Origin: Haladaptatus caseinilyticus
Lineage (GTDB): Archaea; Halobacteriota; Halobacteria; Halobacteriales; Haladaptataceae
Direction: 5' to 3'
Assembly (NCBI RefSeq): GCF_026248685.1
Contig: NZ_CP111037.1
Coordinates: 248,001 to 312,000 of the forward strand
Length of the DNA: 64,000 bases
Position numbers and translations under genes: made by a program
The notes under the pieces: generated by a model
Seen by the model: the letters and a program-made list of their open reading frames with translations, nothing else
Databases searched by the model: none
Told to the model about the DNA's origin: nothing
Part shown: piece by piece, positions 42,433 through 51,187 of the stretch
Layout of the letters: each line of letters begins with the position of its first letter
How positions within the stretch are numbered: the stretch's first letter is position 1

Positions 42433-43018
42433 TCGTCCTGATTATCCGTACATATGCAGTGACGCTTGCTATCGCCTGAGAGCATTATGTTCGTCATTTG
42501 GCCCTCACTGCTCGATTCGGCTGCGTCGTATACCGGAAACCATCCCCCATTCCGATAGATGGCATCTATTTCTCCCCCGTCAGGGTACACGACGACGAGG
42601 CCTATAGGTTTGACTCCTGGTTGTTCGGCCGATTACGTACCAAATTATGCATAGATTGATCCGGGAATACCGGGGGTTATCCACTTCCGCTTTGTGATCT
42701 AATGGGAAGTGAATCTACCAACAGCTCATTGGTCGAAATCGGGTTTCTGAGGCACTGAAATTGGTAATAAAGATACAATAAATCCTATACTGCGATATTA
42801 AATCAATAATACACAGTGGCGAGAGCCCTCAGCAGGTAGCGTTCCTGGAATGAACGACTTCAGTGATCACAACGGATTCGTACTTCTGCAAACCGTCGCC
42901 GTGTCGTTCGCGCTTCTCCTCGGAATTGAGGATAGATAACGAATTCCCGGTAGTAGAAGAACCGACAGCGGTGTGAAAATCCACGGGATTTAACGAGTCG
43001 TGCGTGAACGACCGAGTA
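42433..43018. other. Intergenic region with a motif shared with 36366
   Basis: These 586 bases hold no supported gene. TACCGGGG at 42669 followed at the same spacing by CACTTCCGCTT is found again at about 36368-36393. AT-rich DNA follows at 42765-42815. A GATTTAACG box at about 42986 is at the right distance for the gene at 43019. Confidence 0.45.
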
Positions 43019-43759
43019 ATGCAATCCATCGATGAAATTCACATCGCACCGCTGGGATACGAATTCGACCGAATCGTCGGCCCAGTCCATCAACACGGTG
43101 TCGATGTCCTCTATCTCCTCGAACACGACGGTCCGGCGAGCGAGCGGCCTGACTATCACGACGAACTGAAATCCGTTCTTCGGGGCGACGGTATCGACGT
43201 CAGGAGTAAAGCCGTCGATCTGCTCGACATCTACGACGTGCTTGGCGTCGTTACGACACTCGTCTCCGACCACGAGGACGATATCGTTCGCGTGAACGTT
43301 TCGAGCGGGTCGAAACTCTCTGCGGTCGGCGCGGCCATCGCCTGTATGGCGACCGATGCGACGGCGTACTACGTGCAACCGGAAGGATACGCACATCAAG
43401 ACCGTAACGAACGACAAAGCTACGGATACGTCGGCGAAGAGGTACTCCCCACCTATCCCATCGAATCACCGACGCGGGACCAAGTCGCTGTGATGGATTA
43501 CGTAGACGAAGCGGATACCGAGGTGTACACGCCGAAGAAAAAGGACATCATCGACTACGCGGAGGCCGCACATCTGTCGTTCATTTCCGACAGCGACCCG
43601 GCGAACGACAAGGCAAAATTCGCTCTGTTGAATGCCAATATCGTCGATCCGCTCGTGGAGGACGGCTACGTCAATGTGAAAAAAGTGGGGCGACAAAAGC
43701 AAGTGACGTTGACCGAGACGGGTCGAGACGTGCTTCGGGCCTTTCGACACAAGCTCTGA
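43019..43759 (+). CDS. HFX_2341-type CARF/winged-helix regulator (DUF6293)
   Basis: This 246-residue protein has an N-terminal CARF-like Rossmann domain (IHIAPLGYEFDRIVGPV, VLYLLEHD, IVRVNVSSGSKLSAVGAAIA) and a C-terminal winged helix (TPKKKDIIDYAEAAHLSFI to QVTLTETGRDVLRAF). HFX_2341-type proteins resemble Csa3 regulators of CRISPR systems, whose CARF domain binds cyclic oligoadenylates. The S-S-G-S-K loop is the expected ligand site. No cas gene or repeat array is near, so the ligand and target are unknown. I use the ATG at 43019 with GATTTAACG about 30 bases upstream; a GTG 15 bases earlier is possible. Confidence 0.85.
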   Translation: MQSIDEIHIAPLGYEFDRIVGPVHQHGVDVLYLLEHDGPASERPDYHDELKSVLRGDGIDVRSKAVDLLDIYDVLGVVTTLVSDHEDDIVRVNVSSGSKLSAVGAAIACMATDATAYYVQPEGYAHQDRNERQSYGYVGEEVLPTYPIESPTRDQVAVMDYVDEADTEVYTPKKKDIIDYAEAAHLSFISDSDPANDKAKFALLNANIVDPLVEDGYVNVKKVGRQKQVTLTETGRDVLRAFRHKL

Positions 43760-44218: not shown

Positions 44219-44596
44219 TCAGTTCATCCGGATATATTCCATCAGGCCGCGTATCGTCGCCTGCAAATCCGCCTTATCGACCGGCTTTTCGAGAATGGTT
44301 TGTGCCCCCCGGCTGACCGCTTTCTGACGCATTGCGGGCGGAATCTGTGCGGCGAGGACGAGCATGGGAATATCTCGGTTGTTGAGCTGCTCACATCGCT
44401 TCCAGATGTCCTCGGTGAATCCGTCCACGTCGAGAACGGCGAGCGCCACGTCGTCACGATGCTGAAGCAGTTCGTCGAACTCCCCCATATTCGTCGCTAT
44501 CTCGACGTCGTATCCACCGTTTTCGAGGAGTCCAGCGAGCAGTTCGAGGTTTCGCTCTCGCTTACCGAGCGCGAGAATGAGGGCCGCCTCACCCAT
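44219..44596 (-). CDS. Atypical receiver-domain protein (module 1)
   Basis: This 125-residue protein has the receiver fold: ALILALGKRERNLELLAGLL, then VALAVLDVDGF with the phospho-acceptor Asp position, MLVLAAQIPP, and ILEKPVDKADL with the conserved Lys. The acidic pair that normally follows the first strand is missing (LGKRER instead of VDDD), so Mg2+-dependent phosphorylation may be lost. It overlaps the KaiC-like gene by 8 bases. The receiver at 48145-48507 is a clear paralogue with the same overlap. Confidence 0.82.
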   Translation of the reverse strand: MGEAALILALGKRERNLELLAGLLENGGYDVEIATNMGEFDELLQHRDDVALAVLDVDGFTEDIWKRCEQLNNRDIPMLVLAAQIPPAMRQKAVSRGAQTILEKPVDKADLQATIRGLMEYIRMN

Positions 44597-46064
44597 TGTG
44601 GTTTCCTGATGCCGACTGCGCCACCTCCGGAGAACCCGAAAGGACGCTGTTCAGTTCGGTCAAGGGTTCCCCGACCTTGAGACCGTGTTCCGTGATTTTG
44701 AACTCCCGAAGGCTTCGCTCGAAGTCGCTCGTGCGCTTTTTCAGGACGCCAATAGCTTTGCGCATCTCGCCGGTGACTTCGAGATGACGAAGAAAAACAA
44801 TATTGTCCGCAAGGTAGCTGATTCCCGCTTCGGTCGCTTGAAACTCACCAGTAATGGTGTCGATTTCGTCCACGAGAATGACGGTGACCCCCATGTTCTT
44901 TAGATAGCGACAAAGCGAATGGAGTTTTCGAACCAACACACGGTCGTCGTCGTCCCTGAGCGAGAGTTTGTAGCCGTCGATACCGTCTATCATCACGATG
45001 CTCGTGTCGTTTTCTTCGACCTCCTTTCGTACTCGGTAGGCGAATTCGGTCGCGGAGCAATCGAGGGGTTTCATCTCCTCGACTTCGAGGGCACCCTGTT
45101 CTTGCATCCGTTTGACGGGGATATTGATGGTCTGGCTCCGTTCGCGGAACGTTTCTAGCGTTTCCTCGAACATATACATAACCGAGCGCTCGCCGCGACC
45201 GGCAGCCTCCTTCATGAACTGCGTTCCGACGGTGGTCTTCCCAACTCCTGTCGGGCCGCTGAGAATGCTGATGGTGCCGCGTTCGAGGCCACCGTGGAGC
45301 AGTTCGTCAACCTCCGGAATCCCCGATGAAACGGATTCGATTTCGAAGGACCGGGAATGTTCTGTCGGAGAGATTTCCGGATAGACGGAGAGACCACCCT
45401 GTCCGATGCGCATCGCATGGTCACCTTCGTTGACGGAGGAACCACGGAATTTCGGGACGCTGATGGTTCGCCCGTGGGAGGAGTGTTCGAGTTCAATCGT
45501 GCCGTCGGTCATGTATTGTAGGTCGTCGTCGGACGACTCATCACTGTGTTGTGACGTGAACAGAACCGTTGCACCTTGCTCCTTCAGATAGTGCATGAAC
45601 GCGATGACCTGTTTTCTGAACTGATACTCGTCGGAAGTGAGGTGACGAAGGCGAGTGAGCGGGTCGATAAACACGCGGTCGGGGTCGATGGACTCGACAC
45701 GGTCAGTAATCGCCGTCGTCAGTGGTTCCTGTTCAACTTCGCTCGGTGTGAAAATGTCATACGATTGTTCATCGACGAACACGTCCGAATCCGGACTCAA
45801 ATCGAGGAAATGGACGTCCGAAAGGTCGATATCGAGCGTCGATGCGTTGTCCCGAATATCGTCTGCCGACTCCTCGAGATTAACAAATAACACCGTTTCG
45901 TCCGCTTCGACACCTGCGGTGAGGTATTTCATTCCGAGGATCGTTTTCCCCGTACCTGGGTCGCCTCGGAGAAGGTAACTCCGCTTCGCGATAAAACCCC
46001 CTTGTAAAATTTCGTCTAGCCCCGTCGTTCCCGTCGATATTTTTGTCAATTGACTGTTACTCAT
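44589..46064 (-). CDS. KaiC-like two-domain RecA ATPase (module 1)
   Basis: This 491-residue protein has two RecA-like KaiC domains. The first has Walker A RGDPGTGKT (residue 34), catalytic Glu pair NLEES and Walker B RVFIDPL. The second has Walker A SGPTGVGKT (about 268), MFEET and SIVMIDGIDGY. The linker between them carries FRGSSVNEGDHAMRIG. Archaeal KaiC-like proteins act as signalling ATPases or kinases. The receiver-like gene follows with an 8-base overlap, so the two proteins are likely to interact. The paralogue at 48500-49975 has the same length. Confidence 0.92.
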   Translation of the reverse strand: MSNSQLTKISTGTTGLDEILQGGFIAKRSYLLRGDPGTGKTILGMKYLTAGVEADETVLFVNLEESADDIRDNASTLDIDLSDVHFLDLSPDSDVFVDEQSYDIFTPSEVEQEPLTTAITDRVESIDPDRVFIDPLTRLRHLTSDEYQFRKQVIAFMHYLKEQGATVLFTSQHSDESSDDDLQYMTDGTIELEHSSHGRTISVPKFRGSSVNEGDHAMRIGQGGLSVYPEISPTEHSRSFEIESVSSGIPEVDELLHGGLERGTISILSGPTGVGKTTVGTQFMKEAAGRGERSVMYMFEETLETFRERSQTINIPVKRMQEQGALEVEEMKPLDCSATEFAYRVRKEVEENDTSIVMIDGIDGYKLSLRDDDDRVLVRKLHSLCRYLKNMGVTVILVDEIDTITGEFQATEAGISYLADNIVFLRHLEVTGEMRKAIGVLKKRTSDFERSLREFKITEHGLKVGEPLTELNSVLSGSPEVAQSASGNHNG

Positions 46065-46216
46065 ACGCGGCGTTGCTATACCTGCACAATGAAACCGTAT
46101 ATTTCTATCGGAGTGGATAGCGGGAAATCAGTGGAGAGTGGTGCAAGTACCATGATTTATAAAATGGAGATCGAACGACCGGGTTTTATTTCGACACCAC
46201 CTTCAAACAGTCGAGA

Positions 46217-46879
46217 ATGTATCACGACTGCACACAGGTACTCGACTCCGATGCGACGACGTATCCCGATGACCCGCCTGTCGAACTCGCGCCGCACACA
46301 ACCTTCGAGAAGGATGGCTATCGAGTCACCGAACTCGGGTTCGGAACGCACAGTGGCACGCATATCGATGCGCCATCCCATACCGAACCCGACGGGCGGA
46401 CGCTCGATTCGTTTCCCATCGAGACGTTCGTTTTCGATGCAGTACTGGTCGACTGCCGTGGCAAAGCGGCGCGCGAACCGATCGACCGTACCGACCTCCC
46501 GAAATCAACAGGCGGTGACCTGCTCGTCTTTCACACCGGATGGGACGCCCATTGGGGGACGGATGCGTACTTCGACCATCCGTATCTATCTGCGGAAGCC
46601 GCGAGATGGTGCGCCGACAACGGATACCATGTCGCCATAGACGCGCTAAACGTGGACCCGACGCCCACCGAGGGGGCAGGCGACGTATCAGGGAACGCTA
46701 AAGACAAACCTGAGGGAGTTCCTGCTCACCACGCACTTCTCGGGACCGACCACCTCATCGTGGAAAACTTGACCAACCTCGACGGATTGCCGGAACAATT
46801 CACCCTCGACGCGTTCCCATTATCGGTGAGCGATGCCGACGGTTCACCGGTTCGTGCCGTAGCGGAGTTCCAACCGTAG
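46217..46879 (+). CDS. Cyclase family protein (kynurenine formamidase-like)
   Basis: This 220-residue enzyme has the cyclase/KynB fold. The metal-binding motif HSGTHIDAPSH is at about residues 45-55, with GTHSGTHID as the family signature, and AIDALNVDP and PAHHALLG supply further His/Asp ligands. Family members hydrolyse formylkynurenine, isatin or other amides. No tryptophan degradation genes are near, so the substrate is open. The gene stands in plus orientation between the two KaiC-type modules. Confidence 0.88.
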   Translation: MYHDCTQVLDSDATTYPDDPPVELAPHTTFEKDGYRVTELGFGTHSGTHIDAPSHTEPDGRTLDSFPIETFVFDAVLVDCRGKAAREPIDRTDLPKSTGGDLLVFHTGWDAHWGTDAYFDHPYLSAEAARWCADNGYHVAIDALNVDPTPTEGAGDVSGNAKDKPEGVPAHHALLGTDHLIVENLTNLDGLPEQFTLDAFPLSVSDADGSPVRAVAEFQP

Positions 46880-47189
46880 CAATCGAGACAGTCAGCCATG
46901 GAGGAGATCGATTCGTCGACCGGAAGACGCCATCGACGTGGAACACGGTGGGTACATCCCCGTCACGAGGGTCAGTCGCGGGGTCGCTGCCGTAGCTGGC
47001 CCATTCTACACAGTAAAATGAGATGCTCGCAATCACGGCAATGACGACAATCGGAACCGCCTGCGTGAGGTAGGTGACTTCCCACAAGACGATAGAGATA
47101 GCCGTAATCAATGCACCCTAGATGAGCGCGTTCGCAGTAATTAGGTCGTTCCAGTACACCTCGAAGAGCGGTGTGGTTCGACACTTCAT
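46880..47189 (-). pseudogene. Small membrane protein gene interrupted by TAG
   Basis: From the ATG at 47189 the frame reads MKCRTTPLFEVYWNDLITAN then ALI, TAG (47118-47120), and goes on in the same frame GALITAISIVLWEVTYLTQA and VPIVVIAVIASISFYCVEWA. A TATATTTA box about 30 bases before the ATG supports a real leaderless gene. Removing the stop gives a membrane protein with one or two spans and an acidic tail. The frame continues beyond the true end into the cyclase gene, which suggests a further shift. Most likely a nonsense-mutated gene; read-through is possible but unsupported. Confidence 0.5.
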
Positions 47190-47250
47190 ACCAAGTGAAT
47201 ATCTTCGAACAGTAAATATAGATCATTCGAGGCGGGTCGATAGCTGGGTT

Positions 47251-47997
47251 TCAGGGCAAATGACAGGCGAATACGTCGTCGTGAAGCGTCCCTGTGGCGG
47301 TGTCCAAGATCGTTTCCAAATTCTGCGTGTCGTACTGGTTGTACCGAACAAGCGTGTCCAGCGCATCCTCGTCGCCCGCTTCGTACTGGTGCCAGAGTCG
47401 GACCGCGTCCTGTCCATCAATGTCCATTCCGCCGCGACTGATGCCGAGTTCGTCTTCCACCGCACTCAACCCGCCCGTGAGGCCGAGACGTTTGCAGGTG
47501 TACATCAGATCGACGTGCGGCGTATCGAGCGAGAGATCGAAGTTGTGTTCGAGGAATGGTTGGTCGAACCGTTTTCCGTTGAATGAGACGATGAGGTCGG
47601 ATCCGCCGAGTTCGCGCTGAAGCGCCTCGGCGGTAAGGTCGTCCCCTCGGACGAGCGTTTTCGTCTCGCCGTCCTGATGAAGACTGACGGTCGTGACGAC
47701 ACTCGAATACTTGCTCAAGCCGGTCGTCTCGATGTCGAAAAAGCAGGTATTTTCCTTGAAGTTTTCGTACAGTCGCCAGTTCTCACCGCTAGGGAACTCG
47801 GACGCGAAAAACCGTGAGTTGCCGTCGTCCAGATGCTCGTGCGCGGTAGCGATGAACGACTCGATTCTGTCGGCCGTCGCGTCCCCGACGAGCGACGGAT
47901 CGAACTCATCCCAGTTGATGCTGCCGTTCCGCCACAGTTTCTGCTCCGTCTTCTCGCCCACCCCGCGGACGGGAATGAAACTGTTCTCAATTCGCAT
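47251..47997 (-). CDS. Ribonuclease H-like 3'-5' exonuclease (YprB type)
   Basis: This 248-residue protein has a helix-hairpin-helix-like N-terminus (IPVRGVGEKTEQKLWRNG) and then a DEDD-type exonuclease domain. The motifs are FFDIETTGL (Asp, Glu), VSFNGKRFDQPFLEHNF (Asp), and RYNQYDTQNLETI (Tyr, Asp), which fits the DEDDy group of YprB. The length is at the short end of the family. It would trim RNA or DNA ends, and its partners are unknown. It sits between the KaiC-type modules and is separated from module 2 by 147 bases. Confidence 0.85.
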   Translation of the reverse strand: MRIENSFIPVRGVGEKTEQKLWRNGSINWDEFDPSLVGDATADRIESFIATAHEHLDDGNSRFFASEFPSGENWRLYENFKENTCFFDIETTGLSKYSSVVTTVSLHQDGETKTLVRGDDLTAEALQRELGGSDLIVSFNGKRFDQPFLEHNFDLSLDTPHVDLMYTCKRLGLTGGLSAVEDELGISRGGMDIDGQDAVRLWHQYEAGDEDALDTLVRYNQYDTQNLETILDTATGTLHDDVFACHLP

Positions 47998-48144
47998 TGC
48001 CGAAAAAATTCGGCGAGAGGCTTAAAGAGGTTGCCTCTCGCGGGCGATAATCGCCAACTCAAAACAAGTAACAAATTATTTATAATATTTCATATGTAAG
48101 ATAGTCTGATGAATTCTATAAAACGAACGAGCAGGTTCGAGTAC

Positions 48145-48507
48145 TCACTGCTGTTGAATCATCCCTCGGATCGTCGCTCGAAGGTCAGCCGAATCGACCG
48201 GTTTCTCGAGAATCGAACGGACACCACGACTGATCGCCTCCCGTCGAACGTGGGCAGGGGTCGATGGCGTGAGGACAACGGTAGAGACATTGTTCTCGTT
48301 GAGGTATTCACATCGTTTCCACAGGTCCGCCGAGAACCCCTCCGTATCGAGGACAGCGATTTTGACGGTGTCGTCCCTGCGAAGGAAGGTATCGAACTGC
48401 TGTACGGTAGTTGCGAGATGGGCCTCACATCCCTCCTCGTCTACGAGGTCTGCAAGGAGTTCGAGATTCTGTTCGTTCTTACTGAGGACGAGCAGTGTTT
48501 CAGCCAT
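48145..48507 (-). CDS. Atypical receiver-domain protein (module 2)
   Basis: From the ATG at 48507 this 120-residue protein reads MAETLLVLSKNEQNLELLAD and follows the receiver fold with VKIAVLDTEGF (Asp), STVVLTPSTP and ILEKPVDSADLRATIRGM (Lys). As in module 1, the acidic pair after the first strand is absent (LSKNEQ). The overlap with the KaiC-like gene is again 8 bases (48500-48507). The two receivers share ERNLELL/EQNLELL, DLWKRCE/DIWKRCE and EKPVD. Confidence 0.82.
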   Translation of the reverse strand: MAETLLVLSKNEQNLELLADLVDEEGCEAHLATTVQQFDTFLRRDDTVKIAVLDTEGFSADLWKRCEYLNENNVSTVVLTPSTPAHVRREAISRGVRSILEKPVDSADLRATIRGMIQQQ

Positions 48508-49975
48508 CGTTCGACACGGATTCGGATTCGACCCACTCCGGTTCACCTGACAGGACACCTCGGAGACCGGTGAGCGGTTCGCCGACTTCGAGACCGTGAT
48601 CCGTGATGCGGAACTCACGGAGGGTCCGCTCGAAATCGCTCGTGCGCTTCTTCAGGACTCCGATGGCCTTGCGCATCTCACCGGAGATCTCGAGATGGCG
48701 GAGGAAAACGATGTTGTCGGCGAGATAGCTGATTCCCGCCTCAGTGGCTTGGAAATCACCGGTAACGGACTGGATTTCGTCCACGAGGATAACGGACACA
48801 CCCATATCCTTGAGATAGCGAGAGAGCGTGTGGAGTTTCCTAACGAGCATCTGATCGTTTTCGCCCCTTACCGACAGCTTGTACCCCTGCAAACCGTCTA
48901 TCATGACGATATCGGTGTCGTTTTCTTCGACTTCCCGGCGCACTTCGCGAGCGAACTCCATAGCCGAGTGGTCGAGGGGTTCCACCTCTTCGACCATGAG
49001 CGAATCCTGCTCGATCATCGCCTCAACGGGAATATCGATGGTACGGTTGCGCCGCATGAACGTCTCCCGACTCTCCTCGAACATGTAGATGACGGAGCGC
49101 TCGCCGCGACTGGCAGCCTCCTTCATGAACTGCGTTCCGGCGGTCGTTTTTCCGACACCGGTCGGTCCACTCAGGACGGTGACCGTCCCTCGTTCGATAC
49201 CGCCGTGCAGTAGATCGTCGATTTCGGTGACACCGGACGGTATCGGTTCGGCGACGAACTCCCGGTCGTTGCCGGTCGGTGTGAGTTCCGGATAGACGGC
49301 GAGACCACCCGGTTCGATACGCATCGAGTGTTGGCCCTCTCGAATCGATGACCCACGGAACTTTGGAACGCTGATTATTCGGCCCATCTCCGGACGTTCT
49401 AGTTGGATGGTTCCGTCAGTCATGTACTGAAGGTCGTTGTCTGGCGAATCCGGCGTGTTCTCCGAAGTAAGCAGTATCGTTGCGCTCTGTTCTTTCAGGT
49501 AGCGCATGAACGCGATAACTTGCTTTCGAAAATGGTAGGTATCAGCGGTAAGATGACGAAGCTTCGTCAGTGGGTCGATAAACACGCGGTCGGGGTCGAT
49601 GGACTCGACACGGTCGGTAATCGCCGTCGTCAGTGGTTCCTGCTCTACCTCGCTCGGTGAGAAAATGTCGTAGGATTGCTCATCGACGAACACGTCCGAA
49701 TCCGGACTCAAATCGAGAAAATGAACTCCGGAGAGGTCTACGTCCAATGACTCTGCGTTCTGCTCGATTTCGTCATTTGATTCCTCCAAGTTGACGAACA
49801 TAGCCGTCTCGTCTGCCTCGGTACCGGCAGTGAGGTAGTTCATCCCGAGAATCGTCTTTCCTGTTCCCGGGTCGCCCCGAACGAGATAACTCCGTTCTGG
49901 AATAAGGCCACCGTGTAGTATCTCGTCCAGTCCAGGCACACCCGTCGATATCCGCTCTGGTGGACTGTGCGTCAT
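48500..49975 (-). CDS. KaiC-like two-domain RecA ATPase (module 2)
   Basis: This 491-residue protein is a paralogue of the KaiC-like ATPase at 44589-46064 over its full length. Walker A motifs are RGDPGTGKT and SGPTGVGKT, with NLEES, RVFIDPL, MFEES and IVMIDGLQGY in the usual order. The largest differences are around residues 170-250 and in the C-terminal tail (ESVSNDG). The stop overlaps the receiver start by 8 bases. Conserved length, order and overlap show that the pair was duplicated as a unit. Confidence 0.92.
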   Translation of the reverse strand: MTHSPPERISTGVPGLDEILHGGLIPERSYLVRGDPGTGKTILGMNYLTAGTEADETAMFVNLEESNDEIEQNAESLDVDLSGVHFLDLSPDSDVFVDEQSYDIFSPSEVEQEPLTTAITDRVESIDPDRVFIDPLTKLRHLTADTYHFRKQVIAFMRYLKEQSATILLTSENTPDSPDNDLQYMTDGTIQLERPEMGRIISVPKFRGSSIREGQHSMRIEPGGLAVYPELTPTGNDREFVAEPIPSGVTEIDDLLHGGIERGTVTVLSGPTGVGKTTAGTQFMKEAASRGERSVIYMFEESRETFMRRNRTIDIPVEAMIEQDSLMVEEVEPLDHSAMEFAREVRREVEENDTDIVMIDGLQGYKLSVRGENDQMLVRKLHTLSRYLKDMGVSVILVDEIQSVTGDFQATEAGISYLADNIVFLRHLEISGEMRKAIGVLKKRTSDFERTLREFRITDHGLEVGEPLTGLRGVLSGEPEWVESESVSNDG

Positions 49976-50320
49976 ACCCTACTATAGAATCACTGTAACC
50001 CGCATATATCTCTATTGGGCGCGGAAGTAAGGGGCCAAACAACTTGCCGACCAGTCGAGGGGGGGTTTCGAACGAGTGTTATCGAATAGTTTTGCAGGAA
50101 TTCGAACACTAGTGGGAAAAAATGGAATTATCAATACGAATTTGAAGAGTCAATTAGGGAGGCATTACCCATTTGAAGCTCGAAGTAAGCGAAGCAGTCG
50201 GTCGGGTGGGACGACGAATAACAAAGCACGGCGAGGCCCTAGACCGAATGATTGCGTGGAGCGGCGACAGAACATAACGGTTAGACTTGGACCGTCGATC
50301 CACGCAGGGTGAACAATACG
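49976..50320. other. Intergenic region, nothing firm
   Basis: These 345 bases separate the KaiC-type module from the Rieske gene, which are divergent. A CATATATC tract near 50004 lies close to the KaiC-like start and could serve it. TTCGAAC occurs twice (about 50070 and 50100). No gene or clear Rieske promoter was recognised. Confidence 0.4.
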
Positions 50321-51187
50321 ATGTCAGAGGCGGATAAATATCCGGAAGACACGTCACGCCGCCGCTTCGTCAAAGGAGTTGTCGGAAGCGCGGCATTGGC
50401 TGGTATCGGAACTGGAACGGTCGCGACGCTGAAATCTGCAACGGCGCCGTCCGGCGCAGGGGGTGGTATCGTCCAATACTACGGCGTCGAGAACGTCGCG
50501 GGACCGGCACCGCGGGGAATGCCACAGATTCCGGTCGAAATCGAAGACAACGGCGACGTGAAAGGAGTCTGGCCGAAGGTCCAACAGCGAGAACAAGAAG
50601 GCAGAACAGTAACCGTCGCCGAAATGCAACTCGGGGGAGTCACGTACTCATCCCAGTGGTTCCAGTACTGTGGTGTCCAAACATATCCCGGTATCGCACC
50701 GGATGCCGAACAGGATAACTACTTCAGGTACACCTCGTCCTCACAGTACGAGTGGCAGTCCGAAGACGTCGAAGCTGGGGCCATCGTGAACATCAACGAT
50801 TTCGAGGATTACGAGTCGTGGGGGAACGGGATCGGCAAATCCGGACTCGGGAAACCCGCCACCGCGACGTGGCGGTCACAGGACGTTCCAGCGAGCGGAA
50901 CGATACCCGTACAACTCATCCGAAGTCCACGTATCGAGGAGATGGCGAACCAGAACCAGTGGATAGGGGCGAGCACGCAGGAGGGCTTCATCGCTATCAT
51001 GGACAAATGTACACACTTCTGTTGTGTACCTCTGTTTAAAGGCGACCCCGGTAGTGCGAAGTTCAACGCCGAGAACGAGATTTACTGCCCGTGCCACCAG
51101 TCAGTGTATGACCCGTTCTCGATCGAAAAAGTGTCGTTCGTCGCGCTTCCACGGCCGGACGATTCCTCCGGCGGCGGAAGCGCGTAG
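50321..51187 (+). CDS. Rieske [2Fe-2S] protein with Tat signal
   Basis: This 288-residue protein starts MSEADKYPED and has a twin-arginine signal (TSRRRFVKGVVGSAALAG). The Rieske cluster motifs are CTHFC (about residues 233-237) and CPCHQS (256-261), giving two Cys and two His ligands. A long insert of about 120 residues precedes them, as in haloarchaeal Rieske subunits of cytochrome bc-type complexes. It would act in electron transport on the outer face of the membrane. No cytochrome b or halocyanin gene is adjacent. A GTG 12 bases upstream is an alternative start. Confidence 0.92.
   Translation: MSEADKYPEDTSRRRFVKGVVGSAALAGIGTGTVATLKSATAPSGAGGGIVQYYGVENVAGPAPRGMPQIPVEIEDNGDVKGVWPKVQQREQEGRTVTVAEMQLGGVTYSSQWFQYCGVQTYPGIAPDAEQDNYFRYTSSSQYEWQSEDVEAGAIVNINDFEDYESWGNGIGKSGLGKPATATWRSQDVPASGTIPVQLIRSPRIEEMANQNQWIGASTQEGFIAIMDKCTHFCCVPLFKGDPGSAKFNAENEIYCPCHQSVYDPFSIEKVSFVALPRPDDSSGGGSA

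What the first reader, a model, noticed from the sequence alone, without database searches (positions are those of the whole stretch)
44219..49975. Duplicated KaiC-like ATPase plus receiver module flanking two unrelated enzymes
The 491-residue KaiC-like ATPase genes at 44589-46064 and 48500-49975 have equal length, each followed by a receiver gene with an 8-base overlap. The retained overlap shows duplication as a unit. Between them are a cyclase, a broken membrane gene and a YprB-type nuclease. Diverged two-gene copies kept side by side suggest two specialised channels of one signalling system. The receiver is the natural output or regulator of its own ATPase.
Basis: partly seen in the sequence, partly recalled or inferred. 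Interest (0 to 1): 0.6.

Follow-up and report, generated by a model that had tools for sequence, protein, structure and literature searches.

The report
Twin KaiC–pseudo-receiver gene pairs
A salt-loving archaeon (Haladaptatus) carries two old, side-by-side copies of a clock-like ATPase gene, each coupled to a small 'receiver' protein that has lost key parts of its phosphorylation site, and these pairs look like the detached half of a four-part signalling system whose sensor kinase now sits elsewhere in the genome.

Summary
Two double-domain KaiC-like ATPases (A 44589-46064, B 48500-49975; 491 aa each, 73% identical) are each followed by a receiver gene (A/B 49% identical) overlapping by 8 bases. 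The two-unit locus is syntenic in all nine Haladaptatus genomes, as genes or pseudogenes, so the pair predates the genus.

Much of the interpretation changes. The 8-base overlap does not prove unit duplication: overlaps vary from 4 to 11 bases between species. The receivers are pseudo-receivers that lack the acidic Mg2+ pair, also in the bacterial homologues. Copy B evolves faster (receiver dN about 5-fold). The ATPases show patches of gene conversion. Either copy can be lost: A has a stop in G008, B is broken in G007, and both are pseudogenes in G002.

Elsewhere this KaiC clade usually sits beside a histidine kinase with a cryptic N-terminal receiver-like domain. In Chloroflexi/Bacteroidetes MAGs the order is KaiC, pseudo-receiver, that kinase, canonical receiver. 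Every Haladaptatus genome keeps exactly one such kinase beside a HalX regulator; its own KaiC gene is intact in only one of nine.

Best model: the two units are KaiC-adaptor modules acting in trans on that kinase. The architecture is shown; the mechanism is inferred.

The parts
44589..46064 (-). KaiC-like double-domain ATPase, copy A (slowly evolving copy)
   Evidence: Walker A at residues 34 and 270, catalytic EE at 63-66 and 299-302
44219..44596 (-). stand-alone pseudo-receiver A (PsR-A), 125 aa, 8-nt overlap with ATPase A
   Evidence: AF2 model pLDDT 90.4 with receiver fold
48500..49975 (-). KaiC-like double-domain ATPase, copy B (faster evolving copy)
48145..48507 (-). stand-alone pseudo-receiver B (PsR-B), 120 aa, 8-nt overlap with ATPase B
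45654..45806 (-). putative gene-conversion patch in ATPase A (about codons 87-137; permutation-tested core codons 112-134)
   Evidence: silent-site segment P=0.005 before correction for six genomes; A/B codon identity 41/53 in codons 81-135 vs 21/54 in codons 1-80
49565..49717 (-). matching gene-conversion patch in ATPase B
46217..46879 (+). cyclase/arylformamidase-like gene, conserved neighbour of unit A, opposite strand; not part of the module
   Evidence: PF04199 1e-27; next to A in the genus genomes, including G005/G008 where the units are separated
47251..47997 (-). RNase_H_2 (YprB-type) nuclease gene, conserved neighbour of unit B; not part of the module
   Evidence: PF13482 6.5e-39; next to PsR-B in the genus genomes

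Best explanation
The locus holds two ancient paralogous 'KaiC plus pseudo-receiver' modules. Each is a translationally coupled gene pair encoding a KaiC-type double-ATPase and a receiver-fold protein that should not take up phosphate in the normal Mg2+-dependent way. I infer that the pseudo-receiver is the ATPase's dedicated docking/adaptor partner. I also infer that the ATPase's nucleotide or phosphorylation state is passed, through receiver-fold contacts, to the one histidine kinase in the genome that carries the related N-terminal receiver-like domain (encoded with a HalX response regulator on contig C5). The stand-alone pseudo-receiver would either bridge KaiC to that kinase or compete with the kinase's own N-terminal domain for KaiC. 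In relatives these parts are encoded together; in Haladaptatus they are split and the KaiC half is doubled. Shown: gene architecture, conservation, loss of the acidic pair, co-occurrence, and loss of the cis KaiC beside the kinase. Inferred: physical contact, direction of signalling, and action in trans.
For: Receivers: all 21 family receivers, from haloarchaea and from Chloroflexi/Bacteroidetes MAGs, lack the DD pair but keep Asp56 and Lys104. The AF2 model is a full receiver fold. Neighbours: of 90 family ATPases without a stand-alone pseudo-receiver, 75 have a kinase with the receiver-like N-terminus within 2.5 kb. That N-terminus has no Pfam hit in the kinases scanned, but matches the pseudo-receiver profile (hhalign 96.2%, E 2.5e-9) and canonical receivers (97.1%), and folds like a receiver. 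Four-gene order: KaiC - pseudo-receiver - PsR-kinase - canonical receiver in Chloroflexi/Bacteroidetes MAGs. KaiC - pseudo-receiver - PsR-kinase is contiguous in haloarchaeon G143. Co-occurrence: 13 of 13 genomes with the stand-alone pseudo-receiver have a PsR-kinase, against 255 of 391 overall. Splitting: each of nine Haladaptatus genomes has exactly one PsR-kinase. HalX-KaiC-kinase is intact only in G001; KaiC remnants remain in G003 and G006; the gene is absent in the others, including this genome, where 255 nt separate HalX and kinase.
Against: No interaction was tested. G002 keeps HalX, the kinase and PsR-A although both its KaiC copies are pseudogenes, so the kinase need not depend on KaiC. 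The kinase N-terminus is as close to canonical receivers as to the stand-alone pseudo-receivers, so their special kinship is not shown. Asp56 and Lys104 are retained, so some unorthodox phosphorylation is not excluded. The 13/13 co-occurrence is not corrected for shared ancestry.
Confidence: 0.45

Rival explanations
1. KaiA-like local regulation: the pseudo-receiver binds its own KaiC-like ATPase and sets its ATPase or autophosphorylation activity, possibly in response to a ligand, independently of any histidine kinase.
For: Translational coupling without a kinase in 18 haloarchaeal units. In cyanobacteria the pseudo-receivers of KaiA and CikA bind quinones and act on the KaiC system (PMC12632262). 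Both CI and CII Walker A and EE motifs are intact.
Against: The bacterial operons and G143 place the same pseudo-receiver directly before the PsR-kinase, and all 13 pseudo-receiver genomes also keep a PsR-kinase.
Confidence: 0.25
2. One reading: two specialised two-component channels, each with a phosphorylatable receiver as output of its ATPase.
For: Two diverged pairs in conserved synteny; the acceptor Asp and the Lys are kept.
Against: The acidic pair is absent in every member; the T position is Ala in receiver A; single or double loss occurs in three of nine species.
Confidence: 0.12
3. Redundant paralogues in slow decay: A keeps the function while B is drifting and is maintained mainly by gene conversion and chance.
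For: B evolves faster (ATPase dN 1.4-2.5x, receiver dN about 2-6x) and is broken in G007; both ATPases are lost in G002; conversion patches between the ATPases.
Against: dN/dS stays below 0.25 in both copies, B is intact in G008 where A has a stop codon, and B is a well-supported clade across the genus.
Confidence: 0.15
4. A KaiC-type circadian oscillator.
For: Homology to solved KaiC (best 1.3e-62); the H. volcanii cir genes are light/dark regulated (PMC3941300).
Against: No KaiB homologue in the genome; scores far below the KaiC equivalog cut-offs; the Thr of the Ser-Thr phosphosite pair is Tyr (alignment).
Confidence: 0.03

Closest known systems
Haloferax volcanii CirC, adjacent to a gene annotated fixL (PMC3941300)
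   Same: Double-domain KaiC-like ATPase of a haloarchaeon; the neighbour is a sensor kinase, matching the KaiC - PsR-kinase layout seen in most of this family.
   Different: The window's copies have a stand-alone pseudo-receiver instead of the kinase, and are duplicated. CirC itself was not aligned here.
Cyanobacterial KaiC with the pseudo-receivers of KaiA and CikA
   Same: KaiC fold with two ATPase domains and receiver-fold partners unable to take part in ordinary phosphotransfer (PMC12632262).
   Different: No KaiB, phosphosite altered, receiver is a separate short protein that keeps the acceptor Asp.
iKaiC-REC fusions of Methanosarcinaceae (PMC5847659)
   Same: KaiC-family domain combined with a receiver.
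   Different: Those are single fused proteins with a possibly inactive KaiC domain; here there are two genes and an intact double ATPase.
Archaeal REC-PAS-HK kinases (PMC5847659, REC-HisK)
   Same: N-terminal receiver, PAS, HisKA and HATPase order.
   Different: In the KaiC-linked kinases scanned the N-terminus is too diverged for Pfam to see.

Membership tests
KaiC superfamily, double-domain type | Two KaiC (PF06745) domains, each with Walker A and catalytic Glu pair | tested here: met
Circadian-clock KaiC (equivalog) | Score above the curated KaiC cut-offs (NF006799 408 bits, TIGR02655 546 bits) | tested here: not met
   A 285.6 and 180.3; B 269.3 and 169.4 bits
Circadian-clock KaiC (equivalog) | Adjacent Ser-Thr phosphosites in CII | tested here: not met
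   Aligned pair is Ser-Tyr (GISYLAD vs HISTITD) in the alignment
KaiABC clock | KaiB present in the genome | tested here: not met
   PF07689 no match, while the control genome S. elongatus rings
Receiver-domain fold | Alternating beta-alpha receiver fold | tested here: met
   AF2 model pLDDT 90.4; Foldseek hits are receivers, TM about 0.8
Canonical phosphorylatable receiver | Acidic pair (DD) binding Mg2+ | tested here: not met
   Gly-Lys or Ser-Lys in the window, absent in all 21 members
Canonical phosphorylatable receiver | Acceptor Asp and conserved Lys | tested here: met
   Asp56 and Lys104 invariant
[quoted passage not shown]
   Definition read; residues
KaiC - PsR-kinase module (this clade's usual layout) | PsR-type histidine kinase gene beside the KaiC gene | tested here: not met
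   None beside A or B; a single one on contig C5
KaiC - PsR-kinase module | Physical KaiC-kinase or KaiC-PsR contact | not testable with these tools
   No complex prediction or binding assay available

The most novel reading that the evidence does not exclude
KaiC-family ATPases in haloarchaea and some bacteria feed into two-component signalling through a dedicated pseudo-receiver adaptor, found as a free protein or as the cryptic N-terminal domain of a histidine kinase. Haladaptatus has split this system, keeping two KaiC-adaptor modules that share one remote kinase/HalX pair.
Probability: 0.35. Interest if true: 0.75.

Novelty: new variant of a known kind. Interest (0 to 1): 0.5.

Why it matters
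KaiC-like ATPases have been proposed as archaeal signalling hubs, but how they connect to two-component systems is unclear. A 2025 review knows of no functional study of any archaeal pseudo-receiver (PMC12632262). A conserved KaiC - pseudo-receiver - kinase set, with natural losses in single species, gives a concrete interface to test. It also suggests why receiver-fold domains recur as KaiC partners, as in KaiA and CikA.

Tried and rejected
Overlap as proof of unit duplication: rejected, because overlap length is labile.
Receiver tree to prove unit duplication: inconclusive.
ATPase A+B as an exclusive clade: not resolved, because the KaiC of the HalX operon in G001 falls beside A (77/66 support); a clade of A+B alone is not rejected (AU p 0.199).
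Special kinship of the kinase N-terminus to the stand-alone pseudo-receiver over canonical receivers: not shown (20 of 47 score better). The first canonical set was contaminated by two family members; this was corrected.
G002 as a genome that never had the locus: wrong, since it has both ATPases as pseudogenes.
Small 'membrane gene': no homologue found.
Automatic regex for the phosphosite pair across the family failed, so only the alignment is used.
Makarova et al. 2017 on KaiC hubs is not held in the library, so its content was not checked.
Full report
WHAT IS THERE. The window lies on a 394-kb contig of a Haladaptatus genome. Two minus-strand gene pairs were confirmed at the stated coordinates. 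ATPase A/B are 73% identical over 491 residues without a gap. Receivers A/B are 49% identical. Both pairs overlap by 8 nt. A cyclase-like gene and an RNase_H_2 nuclease lie between them. The proposed broken membrane gene is a short frame with one stop and no homologue in the loci searched.

CONSERVATION. The order HFX_2341/DUF6293 - PsR-A - ATPase A - cyclase - nuclease - PsR-B - ATPase B - Rieske is recognisable across the genus. In G005 and G008 the locus is split between cyclase and nuclease, leaving the units 72 and 94 kb apart. B is broken in G007. A has an internal TAG in G008. Both are fragmentary pseudogenes in G002, which keeps PsR-A at 76% identity.

HISTORY. A and B form separate well-supported clades whose inner order agrees. 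The doubling therefore predates the genus as sampled. The nearest outside sequences are in Halorussus. Unit duplication is plausible from co-linearity and the ATPase tree, but not proven. The receiver tree is unresolved (AU p 0.113 against RA+RB), and the HalX-operon KaiC of G001 falls beside A with weak support. Overlap length is labile: A 8 nt in six of seven genomes and 4 in G006; B 8 in G000 and G006, 11 in G001/G003/G004, 4 the likely value in G005/G008; 8 nt also occurs in G015 and G073. The overlap therefore says 'translationally coupled', not 'duplicated as a unit'.

ASYMMETRY AND CONVERSION. Receiver dN between species is 0.149 for B vs 0.032 for A (G000/G003) and 0.245 vs 0.039 (G000/G005). 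ATPase dN is 0.070 vs 0.028 and 0.121 vs 0.071. All dN/dS values are below 0.25. In this genome codons about 87-137 of the two ATPases share synonymous codons more than either does with its orthologues; a permutation test gives P=0.005, with P=0.011 in G004 and 0.015 in G006, uncorrected for six genomes. Gene conversion is the likely cause. It appears confined to the ATPases; the receivers were compared only by overall divergence.

THE RECEIVERS ARE PSEUDO-RECEIVERS. Where a canonical receiver has Asp-Asp after strand 1, receiver A has Gly-Lys and receiver B Ser-Lys. By the definition in PMC12632262 they are pseudo-receivers. The AF2 model (pLDDT 90.4) is a complete receiver fold.

THE MISSING PARTNER. 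In 391 haloarchaeal genomes, 232 have a strong relative of the ATPase. Among 111 family ATPases read in detail, 21 are followed by the stand-alone pseudo-receiver and 47 by a histidine kinase on the same strand. Counting divergent neighbours, 75 of the 90 ATPases without a pseudo-receiver have a kinase with the receiver-like N-terminus within 2.5 kb; some of the other 15 have short flanks. In the kinases scanned Pfam sees PAS, HisKA and HATPase but nothing in the first 120-130 residues. Profile comparison and an AF2 model show a receiver-like domain there. In MAGs assigned to Chloroflexi and Bacteroidetes the operon is ATPase - pseudo-receiver - PsR-kinase - canonical receiver. G143 has ATPase - pseudo-receiver - PsR-kinase contiguously. 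Across 391 genomes, 13 have the stand-alone pseudo-receiver at E<=1e-15, and all 13 also have the PsR-kinase domain, which 255 of 391 have overall.

IN HALADAPTATUS THE SET IS SPLIT. Each of nine genomes has exactly one PsR-PAS-kinase, next to a HalX response regulator where that could be read. Only G001 keeps a KaiC gene between them. G006 keeps an N-terminal scrap and G003 a C-terminal scrap; the others, including this genome at C5:289526, have none. G001 and G003 are close relatives, so the loss happened more than once.

MECHANISM. I infer that KaiC A/B work with their pseudo-receivers as KaiC-adaptor modules acting on the C5 kinase/HalX pair in trans (0.45). The chief objection is G002, which keeps HalX, kinase and PsR-A without an intact KaiC. 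Local KaiA-like control of the ATPase (0.25) and drifting redundancy (0.15) are the main rivals. A circadian clock is unlikely: no KaiB, scores far below the KaiC equivalog cut-offs, and a Ser-Tyr pair in place of Ser-Thr.

RELATION TO THE LITERATURE. H. volcanii CirC, its only double-domain KaiC homologue, lies next to a gene annotated fixL, and the cir genes respond to light/dark cycles (PMC3941300). PMC5847659 describes stand-alone receivers, KaiC-REC fusions in Methanosarcinaceae and N-terminal REC kinases, but in the passages read not this pairing. PMC12632262 reports no functional study of an archaeal pseudo-receiver.

Noticed in passing
L154 (G000:C5:289526): HalX regulator and PsR-PAS histidine kinase separated by 255 nt where relatives have a KaiC gene: an apparent KaiC deletion.
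   Followed up: yes
L161 (G006) and L163 (G003): Different KaiC scraps (N-terminal vs C-terminal) beside the PsR-kinase point to independent losses of the cis KaiC.
   Followed up: partly
L004, L005, L006: Chloroflexi/Bacteroidetes MAG loci with KaiC - pseudo-receiver followed by a canonical receiver; a PsR-kinase (histidine kinase core) lies between in L004 and L006. About 52% ATPase identity to a haloarchaeon suggests inter-domain transfer, direction unresolved.
   Followed up: partly
G000:C1:1821197-1822633 (L080): A third double-KaiC paralogue, 51% identical, with neither pseudo-receiver nor PsR-kinase found nearby.
   Followed up: no
L146 9692-12153 (H. salinisoli): MFS transporter and hypothetical gene directly follow PsR-B in H. 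salinisoli; absent from this window, where PsR-B is followed by the nuclease.
   Followed up: partly
window 43004-43759 and 50309-51187: An HFX_2341/DUF6293 gene and a Rieske-like gene flank the two units in the genus genomes read; role unknown.
   Followed up: no
L002/L003 (NZ_CP085301.1): The whole two-unit locus occurs twice, about 552 kb apart, in the H. pallidirubidus chromosome: recent large duplication or assembly artefact.
   Followed up: no
window 46965-47189: Short minus-strand membrane-like frame with one in-frame TAG and no homologue in relatives.
   Followed up: yes
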